From Mercurialis annua (Eukaryota; Streptophyta; Magnoliopsida; Malpighiales; Euphorbiaceae), in assembly GCF_937616625.2 (NCBI RefSeq), contig NC_065577.1, positions 25,557,501-25,621,500 on the forward strand: DNA of 64,000 bases, in the 5' to 3' direction. Within the stretch, counting starts at the first letter, position 1, and every line of letters starts with the position of its first letter. The notes beneath the pieces are model-generated. The model had not been told where the DNA came from. It worked only from the letters and a program-made list of their open reading frames with translations, and did not search any database. The translations under genes were made by a program, and so were the position numbers. Below are positions 2,507 through 45,559 of this stretch, one piece after another.

Positions 2507-5500
2507 CTAATCATCGTCTTCGTCTTCATTGTCACTGTCATTTGAGTCTTCTAGTACATCAGTGTCGGCATCATCATAATTGATCGTAGTATCATCCTCC
2601 TCATCGCTAGAATAAATCGGGTTTGAGTTTTGACCTTGAAACATTTGACCAACATCAACTTTATCCGGTAATACATCTATAGGATGCAAGAGTTCCAAAT
2701 TTTCACCACCATTTTGATCGACTTCATGACTATTATCTGCCTCGTATTGCTGATAGGGCTCATCATTCAATATTGAATCTTCATTGCACACTTTTTCCTT
2801 TTCTGGCACATCAAATATATTCCTGTGAAATGATTTTTGCACAATTTTCCAATGACCTCCATTTTTCATATCGCTGACATAAAAAACCTGCTGTACTTGA
2901 GAACTCAACACGAAAGAATCACCTGTATACCATTTATGGCTCACATTAACAGAAACTAAGTTGTCATCTGTTTTAATTCCATTTTTATCGCCAACATCCC
3001 ACCAATCACATTTAAACAAGAAAACATGATTCCCATTAACATATTGGAGGTCAATGATATCTGTTAGCACACCATAAAACTCGATTTCTTTCGACTTATG
3101 CTCTCCCGTAACTAAAACTCCATTATTTTGAGTCCGACAAAAATTATCACGCTCAACTGTGTGAAACCTAACTCCATTGACAATTATCCCACTGTACCTA
3201 GCAATTCGTATATCAGGACATAATCCCAACGCATATATATGATCTGTTGCTGCAACCAAACCAGTAGCACGTAAGCGTCCAACCTGAAAAATAAGTTTAA
3301 TGGTGAAATTAGAGGCATAATTCAATATTTTGTACTTTTATAGCATCATACTTACACACTCCTTGAACCAACTGGCAAATCCTGCCTGGTGTCTTTTTTG
3401 CACATCTATAACACTTTCCTTTTGTAATTCCTCAATGTGAATCATGCACAATGTTTATAAAATTAGATAAAAAGTGTAAAATAAAGCTATTTTGAAACTC
3501 TAAAGTCTTTGTTTTTTCAAAATAAAATAACTTACTTAAGATATTCATCAACATCCTCACAATTGTTAAGCACATACCACTGCAATTTTTCAAAATCAGA
3601 ATGGGATAACGTTTTATATTCTGTAGCTCCTAAAGGTCTTGCATTGTTTGAAAATATGGAAAATCCATTTTCCACTCCTATTTGCACAGGAAAATTATTT
3701 CTCTCAACGCGATTATATATTGTCTCAACCCCATGAAAATACAGTGAACAAAAGTTCAAACATTCTTTAGTGATATACGCTTCAGCAATTGAACCCTCCG
3801 GTCGAGCTAAGTTACGTACATAATTTTTCAAAGTACGTAAGAACCTGCACAACAAATTTGTTGTAAATATGAATAAACCATATAGATATATAAAAATTAG
3901 TTAAAACTGCAGCAAGAAAACTAAAAATAAAATTTCCTTATCAACTAACCTCTCAATAAAGTACATCCACCTATAGTGAACAGGGCCTCCTAATTCTACT
4001 TCACGAGGCAGATGAATTGGCAAATGCATCATTACCACGAAAAAAGATGGAGGATATATCATCTCAAGTTTACATATTATCAAAATGATATCGCTCTGCA
4101 ACTTTTTAACTGTAGATCTTTTTAAAGTCTTCGAACAAAGCTCCTTAAAGAAAGAGCTCAACTCTGATAATGCAGTGTAAACCTCACTACGCAAAGACCC
4201 ACAAATTGATGCTGGAAGTAACCGTTGCAAGAATATATGATAATCATGGCTTTTCATCCCCATAACTTTGCAGTCCTGAACACTTACACATCGAGAAAGA
4301 TTGGAAGCATATCCGTCTGGCAACCGGATTGACTGCAACCATTCGCAAAACTTTCTCCTTTCAGGCTTCGGTAATGTATAACAAGCAAGTGGCATAAAAA
4401 ATTTATTTCCCTTTTGCTGTAAATGTAACTCTTTTCTTATACCCATTGCTTCTAAATCCATTCGAGCCTTAATGTTATCCTTAGATTTTCCATCAATATT
4501 CATTAACGTACCCAATATATTTTCACATATATTCTTCTCAATATGCATTACATCTAAATTATGACGTAATTTTAATGTTTTCCAGTAAGGCAATTCAAAG
4601 AATATACTTCTCTTTGTCCAATTGAGCTCTTCAGGACCACGTGCACGCTTTTTTTGGTTAGGTGTATTCCCAAAAACAAGGCTTTTTGGAAGCAAATCTA
4701 ATTGCCTTAGAACTTCATCTCCTGACAACTCTTCAGGCTTTGACCCGTGCTCTGGTTTGCCATCAAATTTTCTGCTTTTTCTCCAAGAATGTTGGGCATG
4801 TAAATATCTCCGATGACCCATGTAACATTTCTTCACTCCATTTTTTAATGTTAGCGAACATGTCCACTTATTACACACAGGACATGCCAATTTTCCTTTT
4901 GTGCTCCATCCAGATAACATTCCATATGCTGGAAAGTCATTTATTGTCCATAATAATGCAGCATGTAATTGAAAATTCTTACCGCTATATGCATCATATG
5001 TTGTCACACCGGTCTCCCATAACTCTTTTAACTCATCAATTAATGGCCTTTAATATACATCGATATTATTTCCGGGAGATTCCTTACCAGGAATAAGCAA
5101 AGATAACATCAAAAAATTCTCCTTCATGCATTTCCATGGTGGTAAGTTATATGGCGTCACAATCACCGGCCACATGCTATAACTCGTGCTCATATTTTCA
5201 AAAGGGTTAAATCCATCACTAGCAAGCCCAAGTCGCACGTTACGAGCATCTTTGCCAAACCAAGCATATTTCTGGTCAAAATCTTTCCATTCCGTAGCAT
5301 CAGCTGGATGTCTAATCGTATCATCATCTACACGTTTCTCCTTATGCCACCTCATATTTTCACCAATATCTTTAGACATAAATAACCTCTGAAGTCTAGG
5401 TACTAAAGGGAAATGTCTAAGAATTTTTTGAGCAACCTTCTTGCGTTTTCCGAAACCTAATTTCCATCTAGGGGCCTTACAAGTTGGACACGTGTCAAGA

Positions 5501-15830: not shown

Positions 15831-16087
15831 TTAACACTATATATACAGTAATCCTACACTATATAAAAAAATTGTCAGTCGGTTGTCACGACCGAAATCT
15901 CAAGCCGCGACCAACGCTAGGGAATGGGAGTGGTAGCTCCGAAACCCGTAGCTAGCCTAGAGATCACTATAAATTTTTCGCGAAACATTAACAAAATGTT
16001 TTTATAAAACTTCTTTAAACGATACAAAACGATCTTTAGAAATCAGGGTCTTACAAAGCGATATCCCATATCAAGCAATGCCCTGTT

Positions 16088-16139
<52 letters not shown>

Positions 16140-16532
16140 GGTTAAAAGTGCAGTCTAAAACCTTTATACATATCAGAGTATAAACAAGATATTTAAAACC
16201 GTTTGATAAAACATAATTACACTCTAGGACTCGACTACTGCAGCACTACTGATTGGTTCCTTCTTTCTGTACTCGCGGACTTCTGGAACAAGGATAGAAG
16301 TCCGTTACATTCGATACCATACACCTGAAACATAACACTATTGGGGGGTCAGACAACGCTGAGTGAGTTCACATTTACTTAAAATATTATAAATATAAAT
16401 TTCATTAACACATATTAAAACAAACAATAATGTTTGATCCGATGAAACCCTAATCTTAAATTAATACTATTTCCTATTCGTATCCTACTCATATTGTATC
16501 CATTAATAATATATCAAATCATTTTAATCCAA

Positions 16533-16716
16533 GTGGTACGGTCCCGAGATAGTTCAACCGAGTTACTCGTTACCACGTGATATAGTCCCGAGATAGTTCA
16601 ACCGAGTTACATCATGTCACTGCTTAATCCCAAAGTGTGAGTCCCGAGATAATTCAACCGAGTTACTCACTAGATACGGGTCCCGAGATAGTTCAACCGA
16701 GTTACTCACGTATCTA
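16533..16716 (-). repeat. Hairpin array with conserved 26-nt loop core, left LTR
   Basis: Four copies of a 26-nt core starting GTCCCGAGATAGTTCAACCG (16541, 16585, 16641, 16680), each bracketed by its own inverted pair: GTGGTACG/CGTTACCAC, GTGATA/TGTCAC, GTGA/TCAC, and TAGATACG/CGTATCTA (16671-16678 with 16709-16716). The cores are nearly identical while the stems differ. Confidence 0.85.
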
Positions 16717-18674
16717 CCAAAAACATAATCCTCCTTACTCCCATACATAATCATCATTTACCGAGATCATATCAAACATTTTTAAATACAAGCATCTATC
16801 TATACTAATTCTATGACTGACCCGGACACTGGTGATCACACAGCCTATTGACGCCCAATAGGTAGCTCGTTTCCTCGGATCATAAAGCAAACATCACAAC
16901 TTACAAATAACAACAATATGTCAAATAATGCATCCAAGCGATATTATGAACAAAGCATTCACATGAATTGCCCAAGTATGAAGTAATAATGTATATGCAA
17001 TGCAATTAATGGATTACCACACAATTAACAACTTATAGTAATAATATGCGAAAGTAAATTGCAAAACTCACAAATTGCTATCCAAAGACTTCGGCCATAG
17101 CAAAGCCCTGTTGCGTTCTTTACGTTTTGCGCCCCCTTAATAGTCGTCTCGTCGAGTCTATGAAGATACGATAATAAATCGTAATTAAAATGGATCCTAA
17201 TCCAAAGGTGTTCAAGCTATAGACTACTTAGCGAATAAATCAATTTATTTTGCCTTGGAATAAATTGATAACCTTTTAAAATATAACTTCTTTTAATAAA
17301 TAACGTTAGTCCAAATGTTATTTATTAACTATTCAATTTAGCTAAATGAAATTAATTATCGAGCTAAATCGATAATTAATTTAATAAGTCACTTTTCCAT
17401 AATTTATAATTAATCTTAGCTCAAAACGTCAATTTATGACTCAATTAATTAATGACTTTACATTTCGTTAATTAAAACTAGTTTTCCCAAAACTAGCTAA
17501 CTAGCCGACTTTGAACCATTAAAACGTTTATTTAAAACGGCCTGACTCTCAAACAAATTTGACATTCTTATAGTTTGTAACCTCGTCTACAACTTTCGTT
17601 CAGATTCTAATCTGAAATTATCGTCCTAAGGTGTCTGAAATGTGTCTTGAAGTTGGTACCTCAAATCTGAAATTTTATTGCTGTATAAACAGCCTTAATG
17701 CTGCTGTATCGGACTTAAAAACAGAGCATGTACGGTAGTCAAAACCTTAAACAAATTTGATATTCTTATAGTCCACAACGTCCTCTACAACTTTCGTTTA
17801 GACCTCGGACTCAAAATAAAACCCGAAAAGGTCGGATATTAGCCTGGAAGTTGGTTCCCTGATTTAAACATTCCTAGGCTGCAAAACAGTCCACTAAGCT
17901 GCTGTTTTCAGACAGCAGAACAGGGTACCTACAGCAGTAATAACCCAAAACAAATCCAACATTCATAAACTCCATACTCCCATCTACAATATCCATGAAG
18001 ACTTCAACTAATTCCGACTTACCGTTTGTTCACAATTTAATTCCAAAGTTTCCCTTTTATTATGTTTTAACACTTAGTTTATTTTTCTAACTTATTTTTC
18101 CAGTTTTTGACTTAACTTCAAACACGGATAATTTTTAATCCGACTTAACAACACCATGTTTATTTCACTTAAATCTCATCTATGCAACACCGTCTATATA
18201 CTTCATTCATTTTCGTGTTAAAATTACTACAGTTCGAGGTCCATTTTTAACCTCAAAACAGCCCTCATGGCTTGATAAATAAAATTTCCAGATTTTTATT
18301 AACTTTTCTACTACTTTCATCAATTAAAATCGATCCTTTCCGACTACACAAATTCTAAACAAACTTGATTTTCTTATATTCTATAATACCGTCTACATTT
18401 TTCATTAAGACTCGAACTAAAACCGACATATCCTTTATACTCAAAATTGCCCTCAAAGATAGCCCCTTAACATGCCAAATTCTGGAATTAAATTACAGAT
18501 TTTTCACTCACTTTTCAATCATTCAAAACAGCCATTGAACACAGCCAAAATTCAAACTTAATCGGTCATATTTCATCTATGTAAAACCCTCTATCCATTA
18601 CAGCTCATATCAAGCACACACCATCACAATTTAGGGTCTATTTTTAGGTGCAAATCACCCTTCGTGGCTGTCCT

Positions 18675-18773
18675 GTTGTGAAGCACAACTGCTGCATATT
18701 GCAGCAGTGTGCAGCGACTTGCTGCTGCAAAAATTGCAGCAGCTCGCTGCTTGTTATAGCAGCGATTTGCTGC
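18675..18773 (-). repeat. CAGCAGC palindrome cassette, left LTR
   Basis: Consecutive hairpins: GTTGTG/CACAAC, ACTGCTGCA/TGCAGCAGT, GCTGCTGCAA/TTGCAGCAGC and TCGCTGCT/AGCAGCGA, with 3-6-nt loops. The GC content is clearly above that of the LTR around it. Confidence 0.85.
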
Positions 18774-19760
18774 TGTTCCGACACCCTTATACTCACCCCG
18801 ACATGCTAGCTCTAATCCCCTTTCATAACCGAACCTTAAGCTCCAAAGAATCACCCAAAAACACTTCAAATTATCACTTAAACTCAACTTAAGCTTGGCA
18901 AATACAGAGCAGAATATTCGATCACTTTGAACTCAACAAACACTATCAAAATCATAATTAATTTCAGCAAATAAGAAGTTACCTTGTTCCTTAGCGTGTT
19001 GGCTTTCCAACCGGACCTTAATCGCTGAAATCGATGATCAATTCGTGAAGATATTAACGCCGCCGTGTGAGTTGTTCATGAGGAACAAGAAGGAAGGGAG
19101 GAAGATGATGGTGATGGCGGTGACCTTCCAACATGAGGGTTTTGTTTTAAGTTTTCATTTTCTAGTTTTAGATAGCAATAGAAATTGAAGGGGTGGGGTA
19201 TGAGGTGTCCTTTTCTTATTAAGTTTGTGGAAAAATCATATTCAAGTGCCTAAATTAGGCACCTCTTCCAACTTAACTCTTAGGCTTTCAATTTCTCCAA
19301 TTTAACCAAATTGATTTCATAATTACACGGAACCTTGACGATTATTCTTTATCGATAAATAATGGGTTTCATCACATTATTTATTTATCTGGGTCCAAAT
19401 AATTTATTTATATCCTTTTCCTTTTCCGATAATCAAATTCCGTTTAATTAAAATCCTTTCGTCCAATTTTTACAAAATTTTATCTTTGATCCATAAATTT
19501 ATTTTACGAACTTTATCGTAAAATTAACTCGGGACTTACCATTTATTTTATTTTAATTTATCTACTTTTCTTAGTCCCGCTAAATTCCAATTTATCAAAT
19601 AATAAATTCCACTTAATTTATTATTTCACGATCATTTTAATAGACCCGCTTCGATCTAAATTCTTATTTCTCGAACTTAATTCCGATGTCCTTGATTAAG
19701 TTCTCGTATTTATGCTTCTTGGCACATTACTTGGTACTTTAAAAGTACGGGGTATCACAT

Positions 19761-19772
19761 TCTTCCCCCCTT
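19761..19772 (-). other. Polypurine tract of LARD
   Basis: The minus strand reads AAGGGGGGAAGA, directly next to the TG end of the 3' LTR: the plus-strand primer for reverse transcription. Just upstream in element sense is AAATTCGAGGACGAATTT, reminiscent of the pol end in Tekay/Del elements. Confidence 0.9.
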
Positions 19773-22700
19773 ATAAAAATTCGTCCTCGAATTTCATAAT
19801 TATAGTAATACTCTTATCCATCAAGTATTACACTTCTTAGCAATTCTTATTGCTTCTTATAAAGACTTAAAGTCTTACTTTTTATACTATCGTTACCCAG
19901 ATCATAAAGTTATAATAACTTCGCCTTTGTAATCCATTGTGTTCCTTAAAGTTTCTTACATCGTCATTTCTTGACGGTTTTCTAGTTACCCGTCTTTATT
20001 ATCAAGTGTTTGATTTATTTTACGATAATTGCTAACATCCTTAAAGATAGTTGGTCTTGTCCTTACGTCCTTCTGTATCATACTTAATCGTATGGTGATG
20101 CTTAATGTCTGTTATAAAAGAGATGACTAATCTCTTCACGAACGTCCTTCGTTCGCACGTAGCTGCTCCTTATACAATTCTCATTGAGATGTTAATCTCA
20201 TCGTCTATCAACTTCTTGCCTTGATAGGTTCACATCTTTTCACTTCTTAACGTTGGTATTCGTCAATCTTTATTCGTCGTTTGCTCCTTAATACCATAAG
20301 GGTAGTATCGTTCTTAATGCCAATTTTGGACTTTTCTTGTTGATATCAACTTTGACTTTCAATTTTGAACTTTTCTTCAACTATTCTTAGTATTAACTAA
20401 AGCACTATTTGATTAATTAACCAATCCAATTGAGTGATTTACTATTTCAAGTTATCTTAAACTTGTCCAAAATCTTGCTTATCTAGCTTAATTTGTCTGT
20501 CCAAATTGCTTATTCAGAAGCGTTTGTTCACTGAACGAAACCGGTATTCGTATAGTTCACAACATCCTTTACCTCATCTCGAAGCTCATTCTTCCATATA
20601 TTTCTTATTTTATGATGTATTGTTACTTAACGTCTATTCCTTATCCCGAACTAAAGTCTTTTCTTGTCTCATATCCTTTAGTGCTTTGCTTCTCTCAATA
20701 TTCGTCAAAAACTATCATTCCATAATAGTACTATCGATTCTCTTTCGCTTGTTTCTCAAGACCTTAATTTTAGTCCTAACTCTTATTCATTAAGTTGTAT
20801 TATTTTTTAATGAGCTTCTGTTCCATTCCCGCTTCTTATTAACTTTTGAGCTTATCGACATACGACGTCGTCTTTCTTGGCATTTCTTTCCTCCTTGTAT
20901 TTAATCACGTACATGTTTACCTTCTCCTCTTTCTCTTCTGTTGCAATACCCCTTAATATTCATTTACTAACTATTGTCTTTATAGTTAGATTTATACGGC
21001 CTTTCGTCCAACACTCTTATTCATGTCTTATGGTGGTTAGGAATTTCTTTTTCTTCACTAATAATCATGCACTTCATAGTTTCATGAATCTCATGAAGTG
21101 GAATGCCCGCCTGGCATTACTCGATATGAATCGAGTCCTTATCCACGATATATCGTAGCTCTAGATCCTTCAATCTTAGTGAATTCAGGACTTGTAATCT
21201 TTTACCATCGTCCGGTGAAGTTCTTATCTTTGTCTTATAATACCTCGCGATCGTCTAATACGTTTTGCGATCATCGTGTACTTCTTTCTTTAATATCTCC
21301 CACCTCTACTATCTGTAAGAGTTGGAGGTTACTCTTTTGTGTTCATCGACAGGTTGTACCCTTGGTCTTGAGCATATCTAATTCTCATCTTCCTACCGAC
21401 ATCTCATCTACTAGTAAGGTTGATCTTATACTTAGATCAACTCTATCCTTCTTGACACCGTGTGTCTATGACTACATAGAAGTCGATTCCTTTTATCTTC
21501 TTGTTATTTTCTATATAACGTCTTTAATTCCATCCCTCGATTACCTTTATCGCGTGTCACACAATATACGTAGGCTGTTTAAGTCTTATCTATGTCGATT
21601 AACTTAATCGATCTCTTCATATTCTTAGTCCATTATTTTTTAATTCTTATACACCCTTACACTTGAATGGCTCTTTGTAGGTATCTTAGTTCAAGCTTTT
21701 ATGGGTGTCCTTCTTTATTGCCTTTTGTTTCGAGCTGTCCGATAACATCTTCGTGTTATAGCTCAACCCCTTTGTTGAGTCCTTCCTTCCTATTTCCTTA
21801 CATCCCTTGATGCCTATATAGCTTACTAGCCTTAAAGATTTCTTACTTTATTTGCTTCCTCTAAGATTTATCGGTATATATCCTTGTTTTCCCTTAGAGC
21901 TTATATACTCGCGTACCATGAGTTCGCACCATCGTGTTTATTATCCATATCGATCATATATCCCGATGTCGTTATTTTTGATCATCACTGCACCTCTTAC
22001 TCTTGAGGTGGCTTACTTGCCTTATACGATTCTTACTTTCATAGGTTCTACCTATGAGGTGTGAACTATGTTCACCATTAAACTATCTTTGTACAATCTT
22101 TTATATTTGTTATTGCTCTTTATTAAAGTTTATATATTGGTGTCACAGGAAATTCCATCTGGTTTCTTACGTTTCAAATCAATTTGACTTTGCCGCGGGA
22201 CTTTCAAAACAATTTCTTTTCAAATCAAATACAATTTCAATCATATAGTTTCAAAACCTTTAGTATAATTGCGCATCAGAGTGATGACACCTCTCATCAC
22301 TAAAGAGTTGCTATTTAAAATTCTTTGAATTGCTCGTATCAGCGAATGCATGATGCAGAGTAAAATTATGGTTTTATATCAAAATTTTTATACATATATG
22401 CTGATACTGCAATGTGTTTTCAATCATGTCTTTCATGCTTCCTATGGCATACTACATGCTGGGTCTGTGCACAATTATACTTTCAAAAGAAATCTCAAAG
22501 CTTTATTTCTTTTGTAGACACCATAAGTCAACTCAGACCGGAACTTCTGTGACATTTTAACTTTTCTTTATATGGCTTTTTATCAGTCTTATTGGTGTAT
22601 TTTATTCTCGTTCTCTATCTTTCTATCACATACTATCAAGCTATGTTCAGGGCATAGCTCAGGTTATTTGTGCATATTTGACATTTTGTAGAGTATGTCG

Positions 22701-23318
22701 AACTCTTTCAATGTATGTTCTCTACGTTTTGTTCCCTTCCTAAAGGAATATCTTAGGTTATGCACCTAGGTTCTCATTCTTCCTAGTGCATCGTCTATTT
22801 GATAACGATCTATATCTGATACGATACATCTATGCCATAATGGCTTGTCTTATTGGCCAAACCATAGCTACTATAAGAAATGTGATAGCACAAAGTATAT
22901 GCATCGTACTTGGGGGTGCTTGACTAGATTCGCCCCGTTCTCATATCACTATTCCTGATCGGCGATCTTTGATTCGCTATTTCTGATCGGCGATCTTGCC
23001 CAGACATGCTTGTGAAAGTCCATTTCTCACAAGTCCTTCTCCGTATGCACATTGCGTATGCATACTCTATCATAAATGAAACATGCATTCTTATCACATA
23101 TACATAATCCATATAGAACAAACAGTGTTTCGCAAAGCAATCGATCATATGGACTCGTATCCTATCGAGGAGAGTGAGAAGTTTTGAAAATAAACAAGGA
23201 CTTATCAATGATATGACTCGAGTCCTATAGCTGCAGTAGTTCCTAGCTTAACCTAGTGACAATGTCAAACCTAGGTACAGACGATCACATATAAGCAATG
23301 GCCTATGAATCTAACCAT

Positions 23319-23331
23319 TGCTCTGATACCA
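23319..23331 (-). other. Primer-binding site for initiator tRNA-Met
   Basis: The minus strand reads TGGTATCAGAGCA, the standard plant LTR-element primer-binding site complementary to the 3' end of initiator methionine tRNA, five or fewer nucleotides inside the 5' LTR. It fixes the element's orientation. Confidence 0.95.
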
Positions 23332-23335
23332 CCTT

Positions 23336-26300
23336 TGTCACGACCCGAAATCTCAAGCCGCGACCGACGCTAGGGAATAGGAGTGGTAGCTCCGAAACCC
23401 GTAGCAAGCCTAGAGATCACTATAAATTTTTCGCGAAACATTAACAAAATGTTTTTATAAAACTTCTTTAAACGATACAAAACGATCTTTAGAAATCAGG
23501 GTCTTACAAAGCGATATCCCATATCAAGCAATGCCCTGTTTCTCATATATATATATATATATATATAAACGGTTAAAAGTGCAGTCTAAAACCTTTATAC
23601 ATATCAGAGTATAAACAAGATATTTAAAACCGTTTGATAAAACATAATTACACTCTAGGACTCGACTACTGCAGCACTACTGATTGGTTCCTTCTTTCTG
23701 TACTCGCGGACTTCTGGAACAAGGATAGAAGTCCGTTACATTCGATACTATACACCTGAAACATAACACTATTGGGGGGTCAGACAACGCTGAGTGAGTT
23801 CACATTTACTTAAAATATTATAAATATAAATTTCATTAACACATATTAAAACAAACAATAATGTTTGATCCGATGAAACCCTAATCTTAAATTAATACTA
23901 TTTCCTATTCGTATCCTACTCATATTGTATCCATTAATAATATATCAAATCATTTTAATCCAAGTGGTACGGTCCCGAGATAGTTCAACCGAGTTACTCG
24001 TTACCACGTGACATAGTCCCGAGATAGTTCAACCGAGTTACATCATGTCACTGCTTAATCCCAAAGTGTGAGTCCCGAGATAATTCAACCGAGTTACTCA
24101 CTAGATACGGGTCCCGAGATAGTTCAACCGAGTTACTCACGTATCTACCAAAAACATAATCCTCCTTACTCCCATACATAATCATCATTTAACGAGATCA
24201 TATCAAACATTTTTAAATACAAGCATCTATCTATACTAATTCTATGACTGACCCGGACACTGGTGATCACACAGCCTATTGACGCCCAATAGGTAGCTCG
24301 TTTCCTCGGATCATAAAGCAAACATCACAACTTACAAATAACAACAATATGTCAAATAATGCATCCAAGCGATATTATGAACAAAGCATTCACATGAATT
24401 GCCCAAGTATGAAGTAATAATGTATATGCAATGCAATTAATGGATTACCACACAATTAACAACTTATAGTAATAATATGCGAAAGTAAATTGCAAAACTC
24501 ACAAATTGCTATCCAAAGACTTCGGCCATAGCAAAGCCCTGTTGCGTTCTTTACGTTTTGCGCCCCCTTAATAGTCGTCTCGTCGAGTCTATGAAGATAC
24601 GATAATAAATCGTAATTAAAATGGATCCTAATCCAAAGGTGTTCAAGCTATAGACTACTTAGCGAATAAATCAATTTATTTTGCCTTGGAATAAATTGAT
24701 AACCTTTTAAAATATAACTTCTTTTAATAAATAACGTTAGTCCAAATGTTATTTATTAACTATTCAATTTAGCTAAATGAAATTAATTATCGAGCTAAAT
24801 CGATAATTAATTTAATAAGTCACTTTTCCATAATTTATAATTAATCTTAGCTCAAAACGTCAATTTATGACTCAATTAATTAATGACTTTACATTTCGTT
24901 AATTAAAACTAGTTTTCCCAAAACTAGCTAACTAGCCGACTTTGAACCATTAAAACGTTTATTTAAAACGGCCTGACTCTCAAACAAATTTGACATTCTT
25001 ATAGTTTGTAACCTCGTCTACAACTTTCGTTCAGATTCTAATCTGAAATTATCGTCCTAAGGTGTCTGAAATGTGTCTTGAAGTTGGTACCTCAAATCTG
25101 AAATTTTATTGCTGTATAAACAGCCTTAATGCTGCTGTATCGGACTTAAAAACAGAGCATGTACGGTAGTCAAAACCTTAAACAAATTTGATATTCTTAT
25201 AGTCCACAACGTCCTCTACAACTTTCGTTTAGACCTCGGACTCAAAATAAAACCCGAAAAGGTCGGATATTAGCCTGGAAGTTGGTTCCCTGATTTAAAC
25301 ATTCCTAGGCTGCAAAACAGTCCACTAAGCTGCTGTTTTCAGACAGCAGAACAGGGTACCTACAGCAGTAATAACCCAAAACAAATCCAACATTCATAAA
25401 CTCCATACTCCCATCTACAATATCCATGAAGACTTCAACTAATTCCGACTTACCGTTTGTTCACAATTTAATTCCAAAGTTTCCCTTTTATTATGTTTTA
25501 ACACTTAGTTTATTTTTCTAACTTATTTTTCCAGTTTTTGACTTAACTTCAAACACGGATAATTTTTAATCCGACTTAACAACACCATGTTTATTTCACT
25601 TAAATCTCATCTATGCAACACCGTCTATATACTTCATTCATTTTCGTGTTAAAATTACTACAGTTCGAGGTCCATTTTTAACCTCAAAACAGCCCTCATG
25701 GCTTGATAAATAAAATTTCCAGATTTTTATTAACTTTTCTACTACTTTCATCAATTAAAATCGATCCTTTCCGACTACACAAATTCTAAACAAACTTGAT
25801 TTTCTTATATTCTATAATACCGTCTACATTTTTCATTAAGACTCGAACTAAAACCGACATATCCTTTATACTCAAAATTGCCCTCAAAGATAGCCCCTTA
25901 ACATGCCAAATTCTGGAATTAAATTACAGATTTTTCACTCACTTTTCAATCATTCAAAACAGCCATTGAACACAGCCAAAATTCAAACTTAATCGGTCAT
26001 ATTTCATCTATGTAAAACCCTCTATCCATTACAGCTCATATCAAGCACACACCATCACAATTTAGGGTCTATTTTTAGGTGCAAATCACCCTTCGTGGCT
26101 GTCCTGTTGTGAAGCACAACTGCTGCATATTGCAGCAGTGTGCAGCGACTTGCTGCTGCAAAAATTGCAGCAGCTCGCTGCTTGTTATAGCAGCGATTTG
26201 CTGCTGTTCCGACACCCTTATACTCACCCCGACATGCTAGCTCTAATCCCCTTTCATAACCGAACCTTAAGCTCCAAAGAATCACCCAAAAACACTTCAA

Positions 26301-27190
26301 ATTATCACTTAAACTCAACTTAAGCTTGGCAAATACAGAGCAGAATATTCGATCACTTTGAACTCAACAAACACTATCAAAATCATAATTAATTTCAGCA
26401 AATAAGAAGTTACCTTGTTCCTTAGCGTGTTGGCTTTCCAACCGGACCTTAATCGCTGAAATCGATGATCAATTCGTGAAGATATTAACGCCGCCGTGTG
26501 AGTTGTTCATGAGGAACAAGAAGGAAGGGAGGAAGATGATGGTGATGGCGGTGACCTTCCAACATGAGGGTTTTGTTTTAAGTTTTCATTTTCTAGTTTT
26601 AGATAGCAATAGAAATTGAAGGGGTGGGGTATGAGGTGTCCTTTTCTTATTAAGTTTGTGGAAAAATCATATTCAAGTGCCTAAATTAGGCACCTCTTCC
26701 AACTTAACTCTTAGGCTTTCAATTTCTCCAATTTAACCAAATTGATTTCATAATTACACGGAACCTTGACGATTATTCTTTATCGATAAATAATGGGTTT
26801 CATCACATTATTTATTTATCTGGGTCCAAATAATTTATTTATATCCTTTTCCTTTTCCGATAATCAAATTCCGTTTAATTAAAATCCTTTCGTCCAATTT
26901 TTACAAAATTTTATCTTTGATCCATAAATTTATTTTACGAACTTTATCGTAAAATTAACTCGGGACTTACCATTTATTTTATTTTAATTTATCTACTTTT
27001 CTTAGTCCCGCTAAATTCCAATTTATCAAATAATAAATTCCACTTAATTTATTATTTCACGATCATTTTAATAGACCCGCTTCGATCTAAATTCTTATTT
27101 CTCGAACTTAATTCCGATGTCCTTGATTAAGTTCTCGTATTTATGCTTCGTGGCACATTACTTGGTACTTTAAAAGTACGGGGTATCACA
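23336..27190 (-). repeat. LARD 5' LTR (right copy)
   Basis: 3855 bp, nearly identical to the left copy, with a shorter (TA)n (about 23545-23567). It contains the matching hairpin array (23964-24147; here the second stem reads GTGACA/TGTCAC, a full match) and the CAGCAGC cassette (about 26106-26204). Confidence 0.95.
23964..24147 (-). repeat. Hairpin array with conserved loop core, right LTR
   Basis: Same four hairpins as in the left LTR. The second stem here is the perfect GTGACA/TGTCAC pair, while the left copy has one mismatch. Confidence 0.85.
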
Positions 27191-31990: not shown

Positions 31991-32043
31991 TTTTAAAAAT
32001 CACTTACATTTTTTCATTTTTCCTTTAGAATTTGTATTTTCTT

Positions 32044-35000
32044 TGTCACGACCTGAAATCTCAAGTCGCGACCGGCGCTAGGGAATGGGAAATTTCGTTT
32101 CCAAAATCCGTAGCAAGCCGAAAACGAGTATAAATTTTTCGCGAATAAATTGATAAAACAAAAATCATTTTCATAAAAGTCTTTCCATTCTTGACGTATA
32201 CAAACGTCTAGTTCAAAACCTGAAAACATTACATAGGAACCTGGGTCTTATATTGCGATGTCTTACATCCAGCACAGCCCGTTCCACCTTTAACAAACGG
32301 TTTAAAAGCACAGTTTTAAAACTTTTTACAAATATCAGAGTATATGTTTTACAATCAAAACCGTTTGACACACCGTTACAACTTACTAGAACTCAACTAC
32401 TGCAGCACTATTGATTCCGTATAAACTCCGAACTTCTGGAACAAGGATAGAAGTTCGTCATATCCTTTACTATGACCCTGAAATGAAACACTGTGAGGGG
32501 GTCAGTATTTTGGGAAATACTGAGTGAGTTTACGTTTACTAATGGTGTTATGTAAAATAGCATCGCATTTAAAACATAACATATATATATGAACATAGTA
32601 TATATCAAGTATTAGATCCGATTGAAACCTTAATCTTAAACTCTTACTATTTCCTATTCGTATCCTACTCATATTGTATCCATTAATATTATATCATATC
32701 ATTTCAATCCAAGTGGTACGGTCCCGCGATAGTTCAACCGAGTTACTCGTTACCACGTGACATAGTCCCGAGATAGTTCAACCGAGTTACATCATGTCAC
32801 TGCTTAATCCCAAGGTGTGAGTCCTGAGATAGTTCAACCGAGTTACTCACTAGATACGGGTCCCGAGATAGTTCAACCGAGTTACTCACGTATCTACCAA
32901 AAACATAATCCTCCTTACTCCCAAACATAGTCATCATTTAACGAGATCATATTAAATATTTTTAAATACAAGCATCTATCTATACTAATTCTATGACTGA
33001 CCCGAACACTGGTGATCACACAGCCTATTGACGCCCAATAGGTAGCTCGTTTCCTCAGATCACTATACTAGTTTTATTTCATAAAGAATAAACATTTAAT
33101 AAAAATAATAATCATTATAAATAATAACATTTTATGCGATGCATTCATAATAATAATAAACAAAATAAATAACTTTTATTAATAACACGCAAAAGTAGAC
33201 TGTAAACTCACCACTTGCTATCCAAAATCTTCTAGAACAAACAAAGTAATATCGTTCGTCACGTTCCGTGTCCTGTTAGTAGTCGCCTCGGCGAGTCTAC
33301 AAAAATTCGATAATAACCTAAATTATTAACATTCTAACTATATGCTAAATATCCAAAACATAATTTCTAGCCAACTTCGGCTATCAAAATCGCTCATTTA
33401 AAACAGTCCGACCTTTAAACAAACTTAACATTCTTAGAGTTTAGAATGTCTCCTAAAACATTTGTTTAGGTCTCGGACTGAGATTAGCACCCGAAGGTGT
33501 CGGAAATTAGCTCCGAAGTTATTTCCTTAAAGCTGATTACAAGTGCATGGCAGACTGCACAATAAAATGTTCAGTCCAAAATGAACATCTTAGGTTCCGA
33601 TTCATCAAAAACCTATACTTATAAATATTTAAATAACATCCTTAAGTTTCCGTACCAACAAACGAAACTTAATTTGGAGTTATATAGCTTGAGATACGGC
33701 CTTCGCAACAGGGCTGTTTTGCAGAATAGTTTTCTGCAAAACGTCCTACTAGTTTGCGTAACTTATCTCGTAACTTATAACTTATCGGAACTTAATACCT
33801 TAGCATTTATATCATAATTCATTGTACTAGACTAGGGCCAAATGCCTTGAATATTAACCATACCAAACTTCAATCAATACTTATTTCGAAAACGTCGAAC
33901 TACATTCTTACCTCGATCCGTTACTTGTCGAGTTTAACCAACGACGAATGCTTTCGTTCTCGACAAGTGAGGACTTCCCACGAAGCTCCTAAGGTCTATA
34001 TTCCTCTGCCTTCTAGGGGCAGGACATGTGTGGTCGAGTGCCTTTCCGAACCTAGGAAGCAAAACGCTCAACGTTTCATTATCGCCAAACAAGCATTCAA
34101 ACACGCAAACCCGACATATTGCCGAAATCACTTAGTTCTCGTCCAATTTTAATCATTCAAAATTTCCAAAATTTTCAGACATAATACGTCTTACATAACA
34201 GCCCTAACTTATCAATATTCAACCATCAAAGCTCATAATTAATGACTTAAATTTATCAAGAATCATTAACATAATCAACACACCAAATTCATCCATGATT
34301 GCCAAAACTTGCCTTCAATTTCTCATCCAAATCTATCACTTATATTCAATAAATTTCGGCCATGACCTATCTTAAATATATCAACCTTAATTACTCATAA
34401 TTTCATCATCAAAATATCAAGTTCAAAGCTTCTAAACATCAAGAATCATCAATTATATATTCAACCATGAATTCATGAAATTGCCGAAAATGAACAGCCC
34501 TTTACTCATCAATTTTGTCCAAATTCAGCAAATAAAAACTGGAATTGATGCTTACCTTGAGTAAAGGATTGATTCCTGAATCCATAGCCACCAAAATCGT
34601 TCAATTTGGTCGAGAAACGAGCTCCGTAGCTCGATTTTGCCAAAACCGCTCCAAACCCCCTCTCTTCTTCTCTTCTCCATCTTTTCCTTTCTTTTTCTTT
34701 CTTTTTCTTTCAATGGACAATGGATAATGAAGGAATATGAGATAGGGGAGATCAGCAAGTCAACATCTTCTTCAGTAAGTTCTGGACTAAAGTCCATTTT
34801 AATCCTTGAAGTTGCCACCTCCTTACTTATAAATCCATAATTTTTCTTTCGTTCAATTTAGTCTGTCGAATACTAAATCTTTTAGGTCCGATTAATTCTA
34901 TATTTTTTATTACCAAATAAATAATATTATTCTCATATCTTATAACTTCATTTTCTAATAATTTTATTTTGGTAATTTTGGCCGAAAACGCTCAAAATTC

Positions 35001-42231: not shown

Positions 42232-42800
42232 TTCCACTATCCTTTACTGTAATACCCCGAACTTTCAAGGTACCAAGTAAGGTGCCACGAGTCGCAAGCA
42301 CGCGAATATAAATCAAGAACGTCAGAATTAAGTTCTGAAAATAAGAATTTAGACCGAAGCGGGTCTACCAAACGTTATCGTAAAACAACAATTTAAGTGG
42401 AGATTATTATTTTATAAATTGGATTTTTAACGGGACTAAAGAAAAATCAATTAATTAAAATAAAATAAATGGTAAGTTCCTAGCTAATAAATTTTAGGAT
42501 AAAGTTCGTAAAATAAAATAAAGGAGTTAAGATTAAATTCTGTAAATTTGGACAAAAACATTTTATGAAGCGGAATTTGATTATCGGAAAAGGAAAAAGG
42601 ATATACATAAATTATTGGACCCGGATAAATAAATAATGCGACAAAGTCCATTATCTATTATTAATGAATTACCGTCAAGTTTCGTTTAATTACGAAATCG
42701 TATTAGAATTAAATTGGAAAGATAAGTAAAGGTTGGAATCATTGTGAATATAAAAATTAAGTCTAGGGACTTGCATATCATTTTGACCAGTTAGTTGGCC

Positions 42801-42808
42801 TATAAATA
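42801..42808 (+). promoter_or_regulatory. TATA box of LTR B
   Basis: TATAAATA in GGCCTATAAATAAGCC, the same context type as in LTR F, about 550 bp into the LTR. Confidence 0.65.
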
Positions 42809-43209
42809 AGCCATCATTTGAGTCATTTTTTTCATGATCATCAATTAATATTTGAAAACAAAACCCTAACCCTTGAGAAAGCCCTTCCCCGTCAACCCCA
42901 TCACCATCTTCAACCTCCATCATGCTCTTTTGAGCACTTCTCACGGCAGCGAGCATATCTTGGAATTCTGACAATTGTTTTCAAGGATTCAAGCTCGGTT
43001 GGAGAGTCAACTCATATACGGACAAGGTATAATTTATGGTTTTAGATTTGGATGTGTTTTGAATTAGTTTTGTGGAGATTAAATATTGGATTTTCTGTTT
43101 TGGATTAAGTGTGTGTTGTTGGTGAGTTTGAGAGTTGGAATTAGTATGGTTTTGAGTTTATAAATGGGTAAATCAGCGATTGACCTCGAGAGCACGTCGG
43201 AGTGGGACT

Positions 43210-43345
43210 CCGATGGCCGGAAACTGCTCCAGTGAGCAGCAGTTGCTGCTCACCAAGACCAGCAAAAATTCTGCTCACAAGCAGAATTCTGCCAAGAGCA
43301 GAATTCAGCTCTGCTCCTCTTTGAGGGCTGCAATCGCAGCCCTCG
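43210..43345. repeat. Palindrome cassette 1 of solo LTR B
   Basis: GAGCAGCA/TGCTGCTC, AATTCTGCT/AGCAGAATT and GAGGGCTGC/GCAGCCCTC hairpins with 2-4-nt loops, in GC-richer sequence than the flanks. A second, weaker cluster of CAGC words lies at about 43740-43830. Confidence 0.85.
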
Positions 43346-44091
43346 GCCGTCGTAGGAAGCATAATTTTGACACTAAGACAGTCCCTATTCGAGTGGTAAT
43401 TGGTTCAGATTAATAAGAGTTTGTTCAAAGGTTTCGCGACGAATAGTTACGACGATTTAAGTTGGTGTTGAGATGTTTCAAGAGATAATTTTAAAAGCAA
43501 GAAAAATATACAAAACATATATATTTAAAGTTAAAATGAAGTTGGTTATTTGATAATAAGAATGGTGTTTAAGTCTAGTGTTAGAATTTTAATATAAGTG
43601 AAAAATTATAAGTTTAAACAAGGATTAGTATATAGCTAGGAGCTAGTTTTGAGAGAGGATTGCTAGCTAACGAAATGTTGGAATGAGTTGGTTTTTGTGT
43701 CATTGTGTTCGTTACAGAACAGAGAACGGAATTTTAGGATAGCCGCTGCCAAAACAGTGGCCAGGCAGCTGCAGAATTGACTGCAAACAGCAGCCCTTAG
43801 AGCTGTTCTGCTGTCAATAAAACAGCTCGGGGAAGCAACTTCCGAGCTAGTTTCCGACACCTTCGAGTTTGATTTTGAGTCCGAGGTCTAAATGAAATTT
43901 GTAGAGGACGTCATGGACTATAGGGATGTCAAATCGTTTTTGGATTATAACCAGTTTACGTGCTCTGTTTCTAAGTCCGAAACAGCAGCCATGGTGGACT
44001 GTTTTGCTACCAAATATAACAGTTTTAAGGAACCAACTTCAAGTCCTATTTCCAACACCTTAGGACTATCATTTCAGTCTAGATGGGATTA

Positions 44092-44525
44092 CGAACTATA
44101 AGAGTGTTAAGTTTGTTTGGTACTTGGGCTACTTTACGGGAACGTTTTAATAGTCCAAAGTCGACTAGTTAAGCTAGTTTTGGAAAAACTAGTTTTGAGT
44201 TAACAAAATGTCAACTCGTTAATTATTTGATTATTAATTTGACATTTTGAGTTAAGGTTGATTATAAAATATGAAAAAGGGAATTATTAAATTAATTATC
44301 GATTATCTCGAACTATAAGAGTGTTAAGTTTGTTTGGTACTTGGGCTACTTTACGGGAACGTTTTATTAGTCCAAAGTCGACTAGTTAAGCTAGTTTTGG
44401 AAAAACTAGTTTTGAGTTAACAAAATGTCAACTCGTTAATTATTTGATTATTAATTTGACATTTTGAGTTAAGGTTGATTATAAAATATGAAAAAGGGAA
44501 TTATTAAATTAATTATCGATTATCT
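44092..44525 (+). repeat. 217-bp tandem duplication in solo LTR B
   Basis: 44092-44308 is repeated at 44309-44525 with one substitution noticed (TTTTAATAG versus TTTTATTAG). The junction shares a short CGA overlap, so a local duplication at microhomology is likely. The LARD LTR has a single copy of this region. Confidence 0.93.
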
Positions 44526-45056
44526 CGATAATTAGTTTAATTTAGCGAAATTGGATAGCTAATAAATAACATTTGGACTAATGTTATTTATTACACGGAG
44601 TTATATTTTTAAAAGATTTCCGATTTATTCCGAGACAATATAAATGAATTTATTCGCTAAGTATTATATAGCTAAAACGCCTTCAGATTAGAATCCATTT
44701 TAATCGAGTCTAGTTATTGTATTTGTGTAGACCCGGCGAGACAACTACTGACTGGATCTGGAACTCGAGGAGCATGACATAGCGTTATCCAGTTTGGAAA
44801 ATAGGAATAGCAAATGGTGAGTTTATATTAATACTGTCGATTTTTAATACTTGCATTATTTTATAAAGATGTTTTATTTAAATTGTTTTATTACATTTAA
44901 ATGTTTTAAAACCCTTATATAGATCCGATGAAACAAGCTATCTATTGGTCAACAATAGAACTGTGTGTACACCAGTCATAATAAACTGAATATACATAAA
45001 ATACAAACAATATTCAGTAAGATATGAAGCCATAAAGAATATCCTTTAATATCGGG

Positions 45057-45232
45057 TGATGCTAGTTTAACTCGGTTGAACTATCTCGGGACTGCATCAG
45101 AAAATGATTAATGCTAGTTAACTCGATTGAATTATCTCGGGACTGCATTAATCGAGATACAAGGTTAACTCGGTTGAACTATCTCGGGACCTGTATCTCT
45201 CTCATTTAACTCGGTTGAACTATCCCGGGACT
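45057..45232 (+). repeat. Hairpin array with conserved loop core, solo LTR B
   Basis: Four cores equivalent (in element sense) to those of the LARD: 45067-45092, 45118-45143, 45165-45190 and a fourth near 45205-45231. Stems: TGATGC/GCATCA (45057-45062/45094-45099), GATTAATGC/GCATTAATC (45106-45114/45145-45153), GAGATACA/TGTATCTC (45154-45161/45192-45199). No stem seen at the fourth. The stem sequences are unrelated to those in the LARD. Confidence 0.85.
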
Positions 45233-45559
45233 TGGGCCAATAACTAAACTTTGAATTGTATCGGTATGATCGTAATTGAAAGAACATAATGAATAAGAAA
45301 TGTAATATCGTTTCACATCGGTTTTCAGAAAGTAATTTACATATTTTGAAATCTATATAATTGTATTGTATAAAGAAATTTTCTGAAAACATTTTAAATA
45401 TTGATATATGTTAGAATTGCGAAAAATTTCTACTCGTTTTTAGGCTTGCTACGGGTTTCGGAGCTACCACTCCCATTTTCTAGCGCCGGTCTCGACCCTC
45501 GATTTTGGGTCGTGACATTTACAGCTCTAAACCGTACTTTAAATTGTTTCCAACTTTTC

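What the first reader, a model, noticed from the sequence alone, without database searches (positions are those of the whole stretch)
45057..45232. Same loop core with entirely different stems in solo LTR B
In a related LTR in opposite orientation, the same core in the same element sense is flanked by TGATGC/GCATCA, GATTAATGC/GCATTAATC and GAGATACA/TGTATCTC. These do not resemble the LARD stems but are perfect pairs. Comparing two families gives covariation-like evidence that pairing, not stem sequence, is conserved. I know of no description of such a motif.
Basis: partly seen in the sequence, partly recalled or inferred. Interest (0 to 1): 0.9.

Follow-up and report, generated by a model that had tools for sequence, protein, structure and literature searches.

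The report
Covarying RNA hairpin array in LTRs
In the genome of a plant that is very likely annual mercury, mobile elements that appear to lack a full set of replication genes carry a row of hairpins whose loop letters stay nearly the same while the stem letters change in matching pairs, and these hairpins are predicted to act in the RNA and likely help the elements borrow another element's proteins to copy themselves.

Summary
The three perfect stems are real and lie in a solo LTR (42248-45517, 5-bp target duplication TTTAC). Each unit is predicted to fold in element-sense RNA as: variable outer stem, 5' bulge, short xGU/ACx helix, AA bulge, inner helix with two wobble pairs, 10-nt loop. The core (up to 2 mismatches) occurs 5,770 times in this genome, 0 for the reversed control. 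The A-versus-B comparison alone is weak: one of the three B stems resembles a LARD stem, and 26 B-type arrays show no excess of paired changes. But 27 homologous A-type arrays do: 73 both-sided cells in outer stems against 16.6 (maximum 44) in 1000 tree-based simulations. The core evolves 2.5-3.6 times slower than its flanks. Four array-bearing elements whose interior was read show no gag-pol frame. Eight elements with long gag-pol-type frames and the same LTR end and primer site lack the array in the stretch read (two LTRs complete). Two array elements encode a short zinc-knuckle protein. I read it as a multi-copy protein-binding RNA platform of non-autonomous LTR elements, most likely for capturing Gag or nucleocapsid protein. 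The structure is supported by sequence; the function is inferred. No match in Rfam or in the papers searched.

The parts
42248..45517 (+). Solo LTR B (TGTAATACCCCG...GGGTCGTGACA), 5-bp target duplication TTTAC on both sides (42243-42247 and 45518-45522)
   Evidence: ends and flanks read; homology to LTR A
42801..42809 (+). TATA-like TATAAATAA; if used, the array lies about 2.2 kb downstream in the transcribed R/U5 part
   Evidence: sequence; one of several TATA-like matches in this LTR; use as promoter not tested
45057..45099 (+). Hairpin unit B1: TGATGC / GCATCA around the core 45069-45092
45106..45153 (+). Hairpin unit B2: GATTAATGC / GCATTAATC around the core 45120-45143
   Evidence: not among the 12 model hits
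45154..45199 (+). Hairpin unit B3: GAGATACA / TGTATCTC around the core 45167-45190
45201..45236 (+). Hairpin unit B4: weak 4-bp stem CTCA/TGGG (CCCA/TGGG in most relatives) around the core 45208-45231
15884..27190 (-). LARD A: non-coding LTR element, LTRs 15884-19759 and 23336-27190 (7 mismatches and 2 gaps between them), duplication TCGGT on both sides; longest frame of the interior 107 aa in sense, 175 aa antisense
23320..23331 (-). Primer binding site TGGTATCAGAGC (initiator tRNA-Met type by recall) of LARD A, next to the LTR end
23950..24156 (-). Four-unit hairpin array in the 5' LTR of LARD A: AGATACG/CGTATCT, GTGAGT/ACTCAC, GTGACAT/ATGTCAC, GTGGTA/TACCAC
16519..16725 (-). The same array in the 3' LTR of LARD A (unit 3 with one mismatch, GTGACAT/ATATCAC)
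32041..33062 (-). Truncated third LTR of the A type with its array (cores 32721-32883)

Best explanation
The array is a row of hairpins in the LTR whose loops are conserved by sequence and whose stems are conserved by pairing, and it likely works in the element's RNA as a multi-copy landing platform for a Gag or nucleocapsid-type protein that would package the RNA of elements unable to make their own replication proteins. Shown from sequence: in A-type families stems change in pairs at homologous positions; the core is strongly constrained; the predicted fold is more stable in the element-sense strand; the array sits in the last 290-930 bases of the LTR, upstream of the primer site; in the elements sampled it occurs in ones without a gag-pol frame and is not seen in ones with a long gag-pol-type frame. 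Inferred: the LTR part holding the array is transcribed into the 5' leader; a protein binds the bulged hairpin and the UUGAACUAUC loop; that protein is a partner's Gag or the small zinc-knuckle protein that some array elements encode; binding in several copies lets a non-coding RNA compete for packaging and reverse transcription.
For: Paired changes: in 27 A-type arrays, 13 of 27 outer-stem pairs have changes on both sides, 73 cells against a tree-based null of 16.6 (max 44 in 1000), and 95.9% of cells pair against 80.5% (max 88.8). Examples: AGATACG/CGTATCT, AGACACG/CGTGTCT, AGACACA/TGTGTCT; GTGACAT/ATGTCAC, GTGGCAT/ATGCCAC, ATGGTAC/GTACCAT. Constraint: 0.93 parsimony changes per column in the core, 1.93 in outer stems, 3.36 in linkers, 3.30 in flanks; the loci were mostly found through an exact core, and with one or all exact cores masked per array the contrast is still 0.92 against 2.67 or 0.91 against 2.24. 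Sense: in 40 units, selected for stems of 6 or more and at most 3 core changes, element-sense RNA folds lower than antisense in 39 (mean -14.5 against -11.7 kcal/mol; they share the core, so these are not 40 independent cases); swapping right arms gives -9.8, lowest of 200 -10.9. Abundance: 5,770 core places, reversed control 0. Non-autonomous link: LARD A and L009 (whole interior) and L103 and L104 (3.5 kb of interior read) have no gag-pol frame; L009 and L117 have zinc-knuckle frames of 360 and 346 aa (Pfam zf-CCHC E 2.4e-06 for L009; CCHC visible in L117) and carry the array. Eight elements with frames of 1578-1646 aa, reverse transcriptase confirmed in three of these frames (L106, L108, L110), share the LTR end and primer site but lack the array in the stretch read.
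Against: No transcript, binding or packaging datum exists here. The array is missing from the sampled gag-pol-type relatives, so it is not a signal shared by donor and parasite, as a plain packaging signal would be; the true partner may be another family. G-U and A-C cells are about equal in A-type outer stems (17 against 15; pair types seen in 2 or more arrays 3 against 2, B-type 13 against 9), so wobble tolerance does not prove sense RNA. The inner helix shows no covariation. B-type arrays show no covariation. In the shuffle control of A1 the number of further pair types is not raised (36 against 39.8, 497 of 500 shuffles as high). The whole A array does not fold better than shuffles (z +1.13, 180 of 200 as good), although B does (z -3.17). 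dN/dS of the zinc-knuckle frame is 0.62 (NG86) or 0.86 (YN00), weak as a sign of constraint. Pfam found no capsid domain in it. No array-positive element was shown to be mobile today.
Confidence: 0.45

Rival explanations
1. The hairpins work in RNA but bind a host factor, for example for nuclear export, stability or translation control of a long non-coding element RNA (as the repeated stem-loops of the Mason-Pfizer virus transport element do, by recall), and not Gag.
For: Same structural evidence. Absence from the sampled gag-pol-type relatives fits a need peculiar to RNAs that are not translated. The core is nearly the same in the families read, as expected if the partner is one conserved protein.
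Against: Two array elements encode an RNA-binding type of protein themselves. No host target is known, and no curated RNA family matches.
Confidence: 0.28
2. Quasi-palindrome correction: during reverse transcription or repair one arm is copied from the other, so stems stay perfect and change in pairs without any selection on structure.
For: It would give paired changes in one step: 18 branch events have both sides changed with pairing kept. LTR elements replicate through RNA and switch templates often (recalled).
Against: Correction would also remove the 5' bulges and turn the two wobble pairs of the inner helix into Watson-Crick pairs, yet 221 of 253 distinct units keep the first, T-G, and 194 of 253 the second, G-T (units were found by likeness to the core, which favours this). 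One-sided steps also occur: 17 from one standard pair to another, 21 that break a pair and 10 that restore one. It does not explain why the core is 2.5-3.6 times slower than flanks.
Confidence: 0.12
3. A DNA-level array: the core is a binding site for a DNA-binding protein (enhancer or insulator, like the Su(Hw) sites of Drosophila gypsy by recall), with stems acting as cruciforms.
For: Repeated LTR sites can be transcriptional: Sirevirus repeat motifs are palindromic and lie upstream of the TATA box (passages of PMC2829016). Single-strand DNA folding of the B array is also strong (z -3.79).
Against: A duplex site needs no variable paired stems. The predicted RNA fold is better in one strand in 39 of 40 units. 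The array lies about 2.2 kb past a TATA-like site, not upstream of it.
Confidence: 0.1
4. Coincidence of relatedness: similar families share stems by descent, and non-homologous units were compared.
For: Within B-type arrays the stems are mostly shared by descent and covariation is absent. B3-like units occur at other places in A-type LTRs.
Against: The observed values for homologous A-type arrays exceed all 1000 tree-based simulations for pairing, both-sided cells and covariation score, and 999 of 1000 for the number of both-sided pairs; 0 of 10,000 arm permutations over 64 arm clusters reach the natural total.
Confidence: 0.05

Closest known systems
LARD (large retrotransposon derivatives) and gag-only LTR elements (TR-GAG)
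   Same: Non-autonomous LTR elements with long LTRs, primer site and polypurine tract. LARD A has 3.9-kb LTRs and a 3.6-kb interior without long reading frames; L009 has a single zinc-knuckle frame. Class definitions recalled; papers on them seen only as a search listing.
   Different: A repeated hairpin with covarying stems in the LTR appeared in no listing that I saw.
Retroviral and Ty1 packaging or dimerization hairpins in the 5' leader (MMTV Psi, Ty1 TIPIRT; PMC8096270, PMC5454406, seen in the search listing only)
   Same: Structured RNA at the 5' end of the element RNA, tied to packaging, with the primer site involved in MMTV (starts of abstracts).
   Different: Here 3-5 (once 6) similar cores stand in a row with different stems, inside the LTR, and the sampled gag-pol-type relatives lack them.
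Sirevirus repeated motifs (PMC2829016, passages read)
   Same: Many copies of a symmetrical motif in plant LTRs.
   Different: Palindromes with a CGG-CCG core upstream of the TATA box, likened to transcriptional activators; the passages read mention no variable stems around a common loop.
Retrozymes (PMC4918200, abstract and outline read)
   Same: A functional RNA motif inside plant LTRs of non-autonomous elements with Ty3-type conserved domains.
   Different: LTRs of about 350 bp with a hammerhead ribozyme; none of the 4227 Rfam families matched the window at gathering score.

Membership tests
Ty3-type LTR retrotransposon, non-autonomous (LARD) | Two LTRs ending TG...CA, 5-bp target duplication, tRNA primer site, polypurine tract | tested here: met
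   LARD A ends and TCGGT duplication, primer site, purine tract next to the 3' LTR
Ty3-type LTR retrotransposon, non-autonomous (LARD) | No gag-pol frame in the interior | tested here: met
   longest frame 175 aa, on the antisense strand, and 107 aa in sense; decayed pol pieces were not searched for
Solo LTR | One LTR with intact ends between identical target duplications | tested here: met
   42248-45517 between TTTAC and TTTAC
Gag-only element (TR-GAG) | Interior encodes Gag only | tested here: inconclusive
   L009: 360-aa frame with zf-CCHC but no capsid (Retrotrans_gag) match in Pfam at E up to 1
Known Rfam RNA family | Covariance-model score above the curated cut-off | tested here: not met
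   0 families at gathering score over the window; permissive scans of both arrays gave one chance match of 15.4 bits against a cut-off of 62
Retroviral-type packaging signal | Bound by Gag or nucleocapsid and needed for packaging | not testable with these tools
   needs binding and packaging assays
Retroviral-type packaging signal | Shared by the element that supplies Gag | tested here: inconclusive
   0 of 8 elements with long gag-pol-type frames and located LTR end have the array in the part read (0.55-1.22 kb; two LTRs complete); which family supplies Gag is unknown and other partner families were not sampled
Sirevirus repeat motif | CGG-CCG palindrome upstream of the TATA box in Copia-type Sireviruses | tested here: not met
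   the core has no CGG-CCG palindrome and the array lies downstream of a TATA-like site (sequence; motif)
Retrozyme | Hammerhead ribozyme in LTRs of about 350 bp | tested here: not met
   LTR of 3270 bp, no Rfam ribozyme match

The most novel reading that the evidence does not exclude
A previously undescribed RNA recognition module of parasitic retrotransposons: non-autonomous LTR elements gained (and their gag-pol relatives lack) a row of bulged hairpins with one conserved loop, which recruits a small element-encoded nucleocapsid-like protein in trans and so gives a family of non-coding elements its own packaging system.
Probability: 0.22. Interest if true: 0.88.

Novelty: new variant of a known kind. 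Interest (0 to 1): 0.72.

Why it matters
How non-autonomous LTR elements win access to another element's proteins is largely open, and few cis-acting RNA structures in plant LTR elements rest on covariation (my own knowledge). This motif is abundant, compact, repeated and defined by paired changes, so it can be tested directly by probing, binding and stem-swap experiments. It also gives a covariance model (51 positions) with which other plant genomes can be searched.

Tried and rejected
Whole-array folding as the main argument was dropped: B folds better than shuffles (z -3.17) but A does not (z +1.13). A first arm-swap test with too small an offset showed no effect for Watson-Crick pairs (25,150 of 40,320 permutations as high; 1,696 with G-U); it missed stems that start 5-6 nt from the core, and repeats it with the wider offset. 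Strand discrimination by G-U against A-C was inconclusive. A loop-to-interior pairing idea found only one 8-mer in LARD A. The pooled covariance-model alignment of 150 of 212 matches mixes two bulge registers (63.6% of outer cells paired), so I rely on the position-wise alignment A1. The model itself finds 12 of the window's 16 units, missing B2 among others. dN/dS of the zinc-knuckle frame was inconclusive. L105 covers mostly LTR and not the interior, so it is left out of the count of elements without gag-pol; L114 showed no LTR end and is left out of the count of eight. For L108 only 549 bases of LTR were read, which would miss an array placed as in LARD A or L009. The core gave 0 exact matches in viral contigs and 0 in genome contigs; these collections are viral and prokaryotic, so this says nothing about other plants. 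In one search, 29 of 64 arm clusters have an own stem of 6 or more (4.7% for foreign arms); the rest are decayed, short-stemmed or misplaced units. In one search, 253 distinct units (411 in all) were cut out; 100 of the 253 have a perfect stem of only 2-4. A1 uses 27 arrays; ten 3-unit arrays were aligned apart and not put into the covariation counts.

Full report
WHAT IS THERE. They lie in a complete solo LTR, 42248-45517, between two copies of TTTAC. The same core stands four times in each LTR of a non-coding element on the other strand (LARD A, 15884-27190, duplication TCGGT) and four times in a truncated third LTR. The window has 16 core places at up to 3 mismatches, 0 expected. A fourth unit of LTR B, at 45201-45236, has only a 4-bp stem that includes one G-T wobble pair.

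GENOME. The window lies on C55 of a 451-Mb genome. The zinc-knuckle frame of locus L009 is identical to a protein named as Mercurialis annua, so the plant is very likely annual mercury (Euphorbiaceae). The core with up to two mismatches occurs 2714 + 3056 = 5,770 times; the reversed control 0 times. Only the first 100 places, all on C1 and all exact, were listed, so the further families that I read come from C1 apart from those found through.

ANATOMY OF A UNIT. In element sense: outer stem of up to 10 bp with family- and position-specific letters; a bulge on the 5' side in most units; a short helix xGU/ACx; an AA bulge, often longer; an inner helix CUCGG/UCGGG with a U-G and a G-U wobble; a loop UUGAACUAUC. 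Among 253 distinct units cut from the loci, the base pair x next to the core is A-T in 109, G-C in 82, A-C in 16, G-T in 6 and something else in 13; 27 units without a GT there were left out. Element-sense RNA folds lower than antisense in 39 of 40 selected units, and the inner helix is in the minimum-energy fold of 31 of 40. The 40 were chosen among units with a stem of 6 or more and at most 3 core changes, so the mean energy is not that of all units, and because they share the core the 40 are not independent. The whole B array folds better than shuffles (z -3.17) and the whole A array does not (z +1.13).

ARE THE STEMS CONSERVED BY PAIRING? Test 1, arms within the window: the natural pairing of arms is the only one of 40,320 that reaches the observed Watson-Crick total; allowing G-U, 12 of 40,320 reach it. 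Test 2, 64 arm clusters from the loci fetched: own mean 5.03 against 2.72 for foreign arms, 0 of 10,000 permutations. Test 3, 27 A-type arrays aligned position by position: 14 of 53 pairs change on both sides, 74 cells; slid structures give at most 7 pairs and 15 cells; against shuffles the number of further pair types is not raised (36 against 39.8), the other four measures are. Test 4, the same with a tree from 822 flank columns and 1000 simulations of independent columns: outer stems 95.9% paired (null 80.5, max 88.8), 13 pairs with both-sided changes (null 6.0, 1 of 1000 as high), 73 cells (null 16.6, max 44), covariation score 0.318 (null 0.140, max 0.246); the inner helix pairs more than the null (93.4%, null max 90.4) but has no covariation. 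Test 5, 26 B-type arrays: 92.1% paired but no excess of paired changes. So covariation is demonstrated for A-type families and not for the B family of the finding, whose copies mostly share their stems by descent.

CONSTRAINT. Parsimony changes per column on the flank tree: core 0.93, outer stems 1.93, linkers and bulges 3.36, flanks 3.30 (core against flank, Mann-Whitney p about 1e-29). Because 26 of the 27 arrays hold at least one exact core and most were found through one, I masked one exact core per array (0.92 against 2.67 for flanks masked alike) and then all exact cores (0.91 against 2.24): the contrast falls from 3.6-fold to 2.9- and 2.5-fold and stays. In the core, the two leading A, the first T, and the loop positions AA and UAUC change least (0-1 changes each over four units); the second U of the loop changes most (18).

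WHICH ELEMENTS CARRY IT. The array sits 286-460 bases before the LTR end in B, 636-798 in LARD A, 767-927 in L009 and 768-880 in L117, and the LTR end is followed within a few bases by the primer site TGGTATCAGAGC in LARD A, L009, L103 and L104. Array-bearing elements whose interior was read: window LARD A (3576 bases, longest sense frame 107 aa), L103 (3548 bases read, 84 aa), L104 (3512 bases read, 70 aa) and L009 (4173 bases, one 360-aa zinc-knuckle frame). A second zinc-knuckle element, L117, with 57% identity over 345 codons, also has the array (three cores seen, two found by the model); its region downstream of the frame was not read. The zinc-knuckle part (residues 198-298) matches many long frames, 12 rows of them 1636 aa. 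Eight of the nine have an LTR end and primer site like those of the array elements, and none of the eight has a core in the 0.55-1.22 kb read, nor a model hit. For two the complete LTR was read (2502 and 3206 bp) with no core at up to 8 mismatches. In the 1608-aa relative, blocks on both sides of the array position are homologous (to LTR B 2658-2729 and 3172-3270) and the array is missing between them. So in this sample the array goes with non-autonomous elements; whether it was gained there or lost in the others is open.

MECHANISM. A repeated unit with fixed loop and bulges and free but paired stems is what a protein-binding RNA hairpin looks like, and its place between a TATA-like site 2.2 kb upstream and the primer site downstream puts it, if transcribed, in the leader of the element RNA. 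Non-coding elements need capsid and reverse transcriptase from elsewhere. My first choice is therefore a platform for Gag or nucleocapsid-type protein (0.45), then a host RNA-binding factor (0.28). The absence from sampled gag-pol-type relatives argues against a plain shared packaging signal and leaves two options: another partner family not sampled, or the small zinc-knuckle protein that some array elements encode. Quasi-palindrome correction could make paired changes without selection, but would not keep bulges and wobble pairs.

KNOWN OR NEW. No Rfam family; no paper with a 20-base part of the core; no similar motif in what I saw of the listings. The papers I opened were PMC2829016 (passages), PMC4918200 (abstract and outline) and PMC11300327 (passages; none of them tells of such a motif). 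Subscription papers and Dfam were not searched, so absence in print is provisional. One genome only: no other plant genome could be searched.

Noticed in passing
L009 and L010 (C1:13481000-13494500): A relative of LTR B forms LTR-interior-LTR-interior in tandem, each interior with the same 360-aa frame. Evenly spaced array triplets on C1 (about 1.98-2.00 and 12.56-12.57 Mb) suggest further tandem elements.
   Followed up: partly
window 44092-44528: A 217-bp tandem duplication, 99% identical, inside solo LTR B upstream of the array.
   Followed up: no
L060:1259-1310, L064, L074, L080, L084, L086, L097: Some A-type LTRs carry a further single hairpin about 230 bases upstream of the four-unit array (core to core in L060 and L086), mostly with the B3-like stem GAGATACA/TGTATCTC: units have moved or been copied within LTRs.
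   Followed up: partly
L042, L038, L087: Unit number varies: one B-type array with six cores, one with five, and an A-type array with an extra unit more than 150 bases downstream.
   Followed up: no
C54:31913577, C54:15154820, C52:34510019 and others: The zinc-knuckle frame exists as a family of about 346-361 aa at 56-61% identity within this genome, most copies with 1-3 stops inside, and with only one database match in 5.8 billion proteins, the query's own identical protein.
   Followed up: partly
window 16092-16136: (AT)n microsatellite of 45 bases in the 3' LTR of LARD A, longer than in the 5' LTR: apparently the main length difference between the two LTRs.
   Followed up: no
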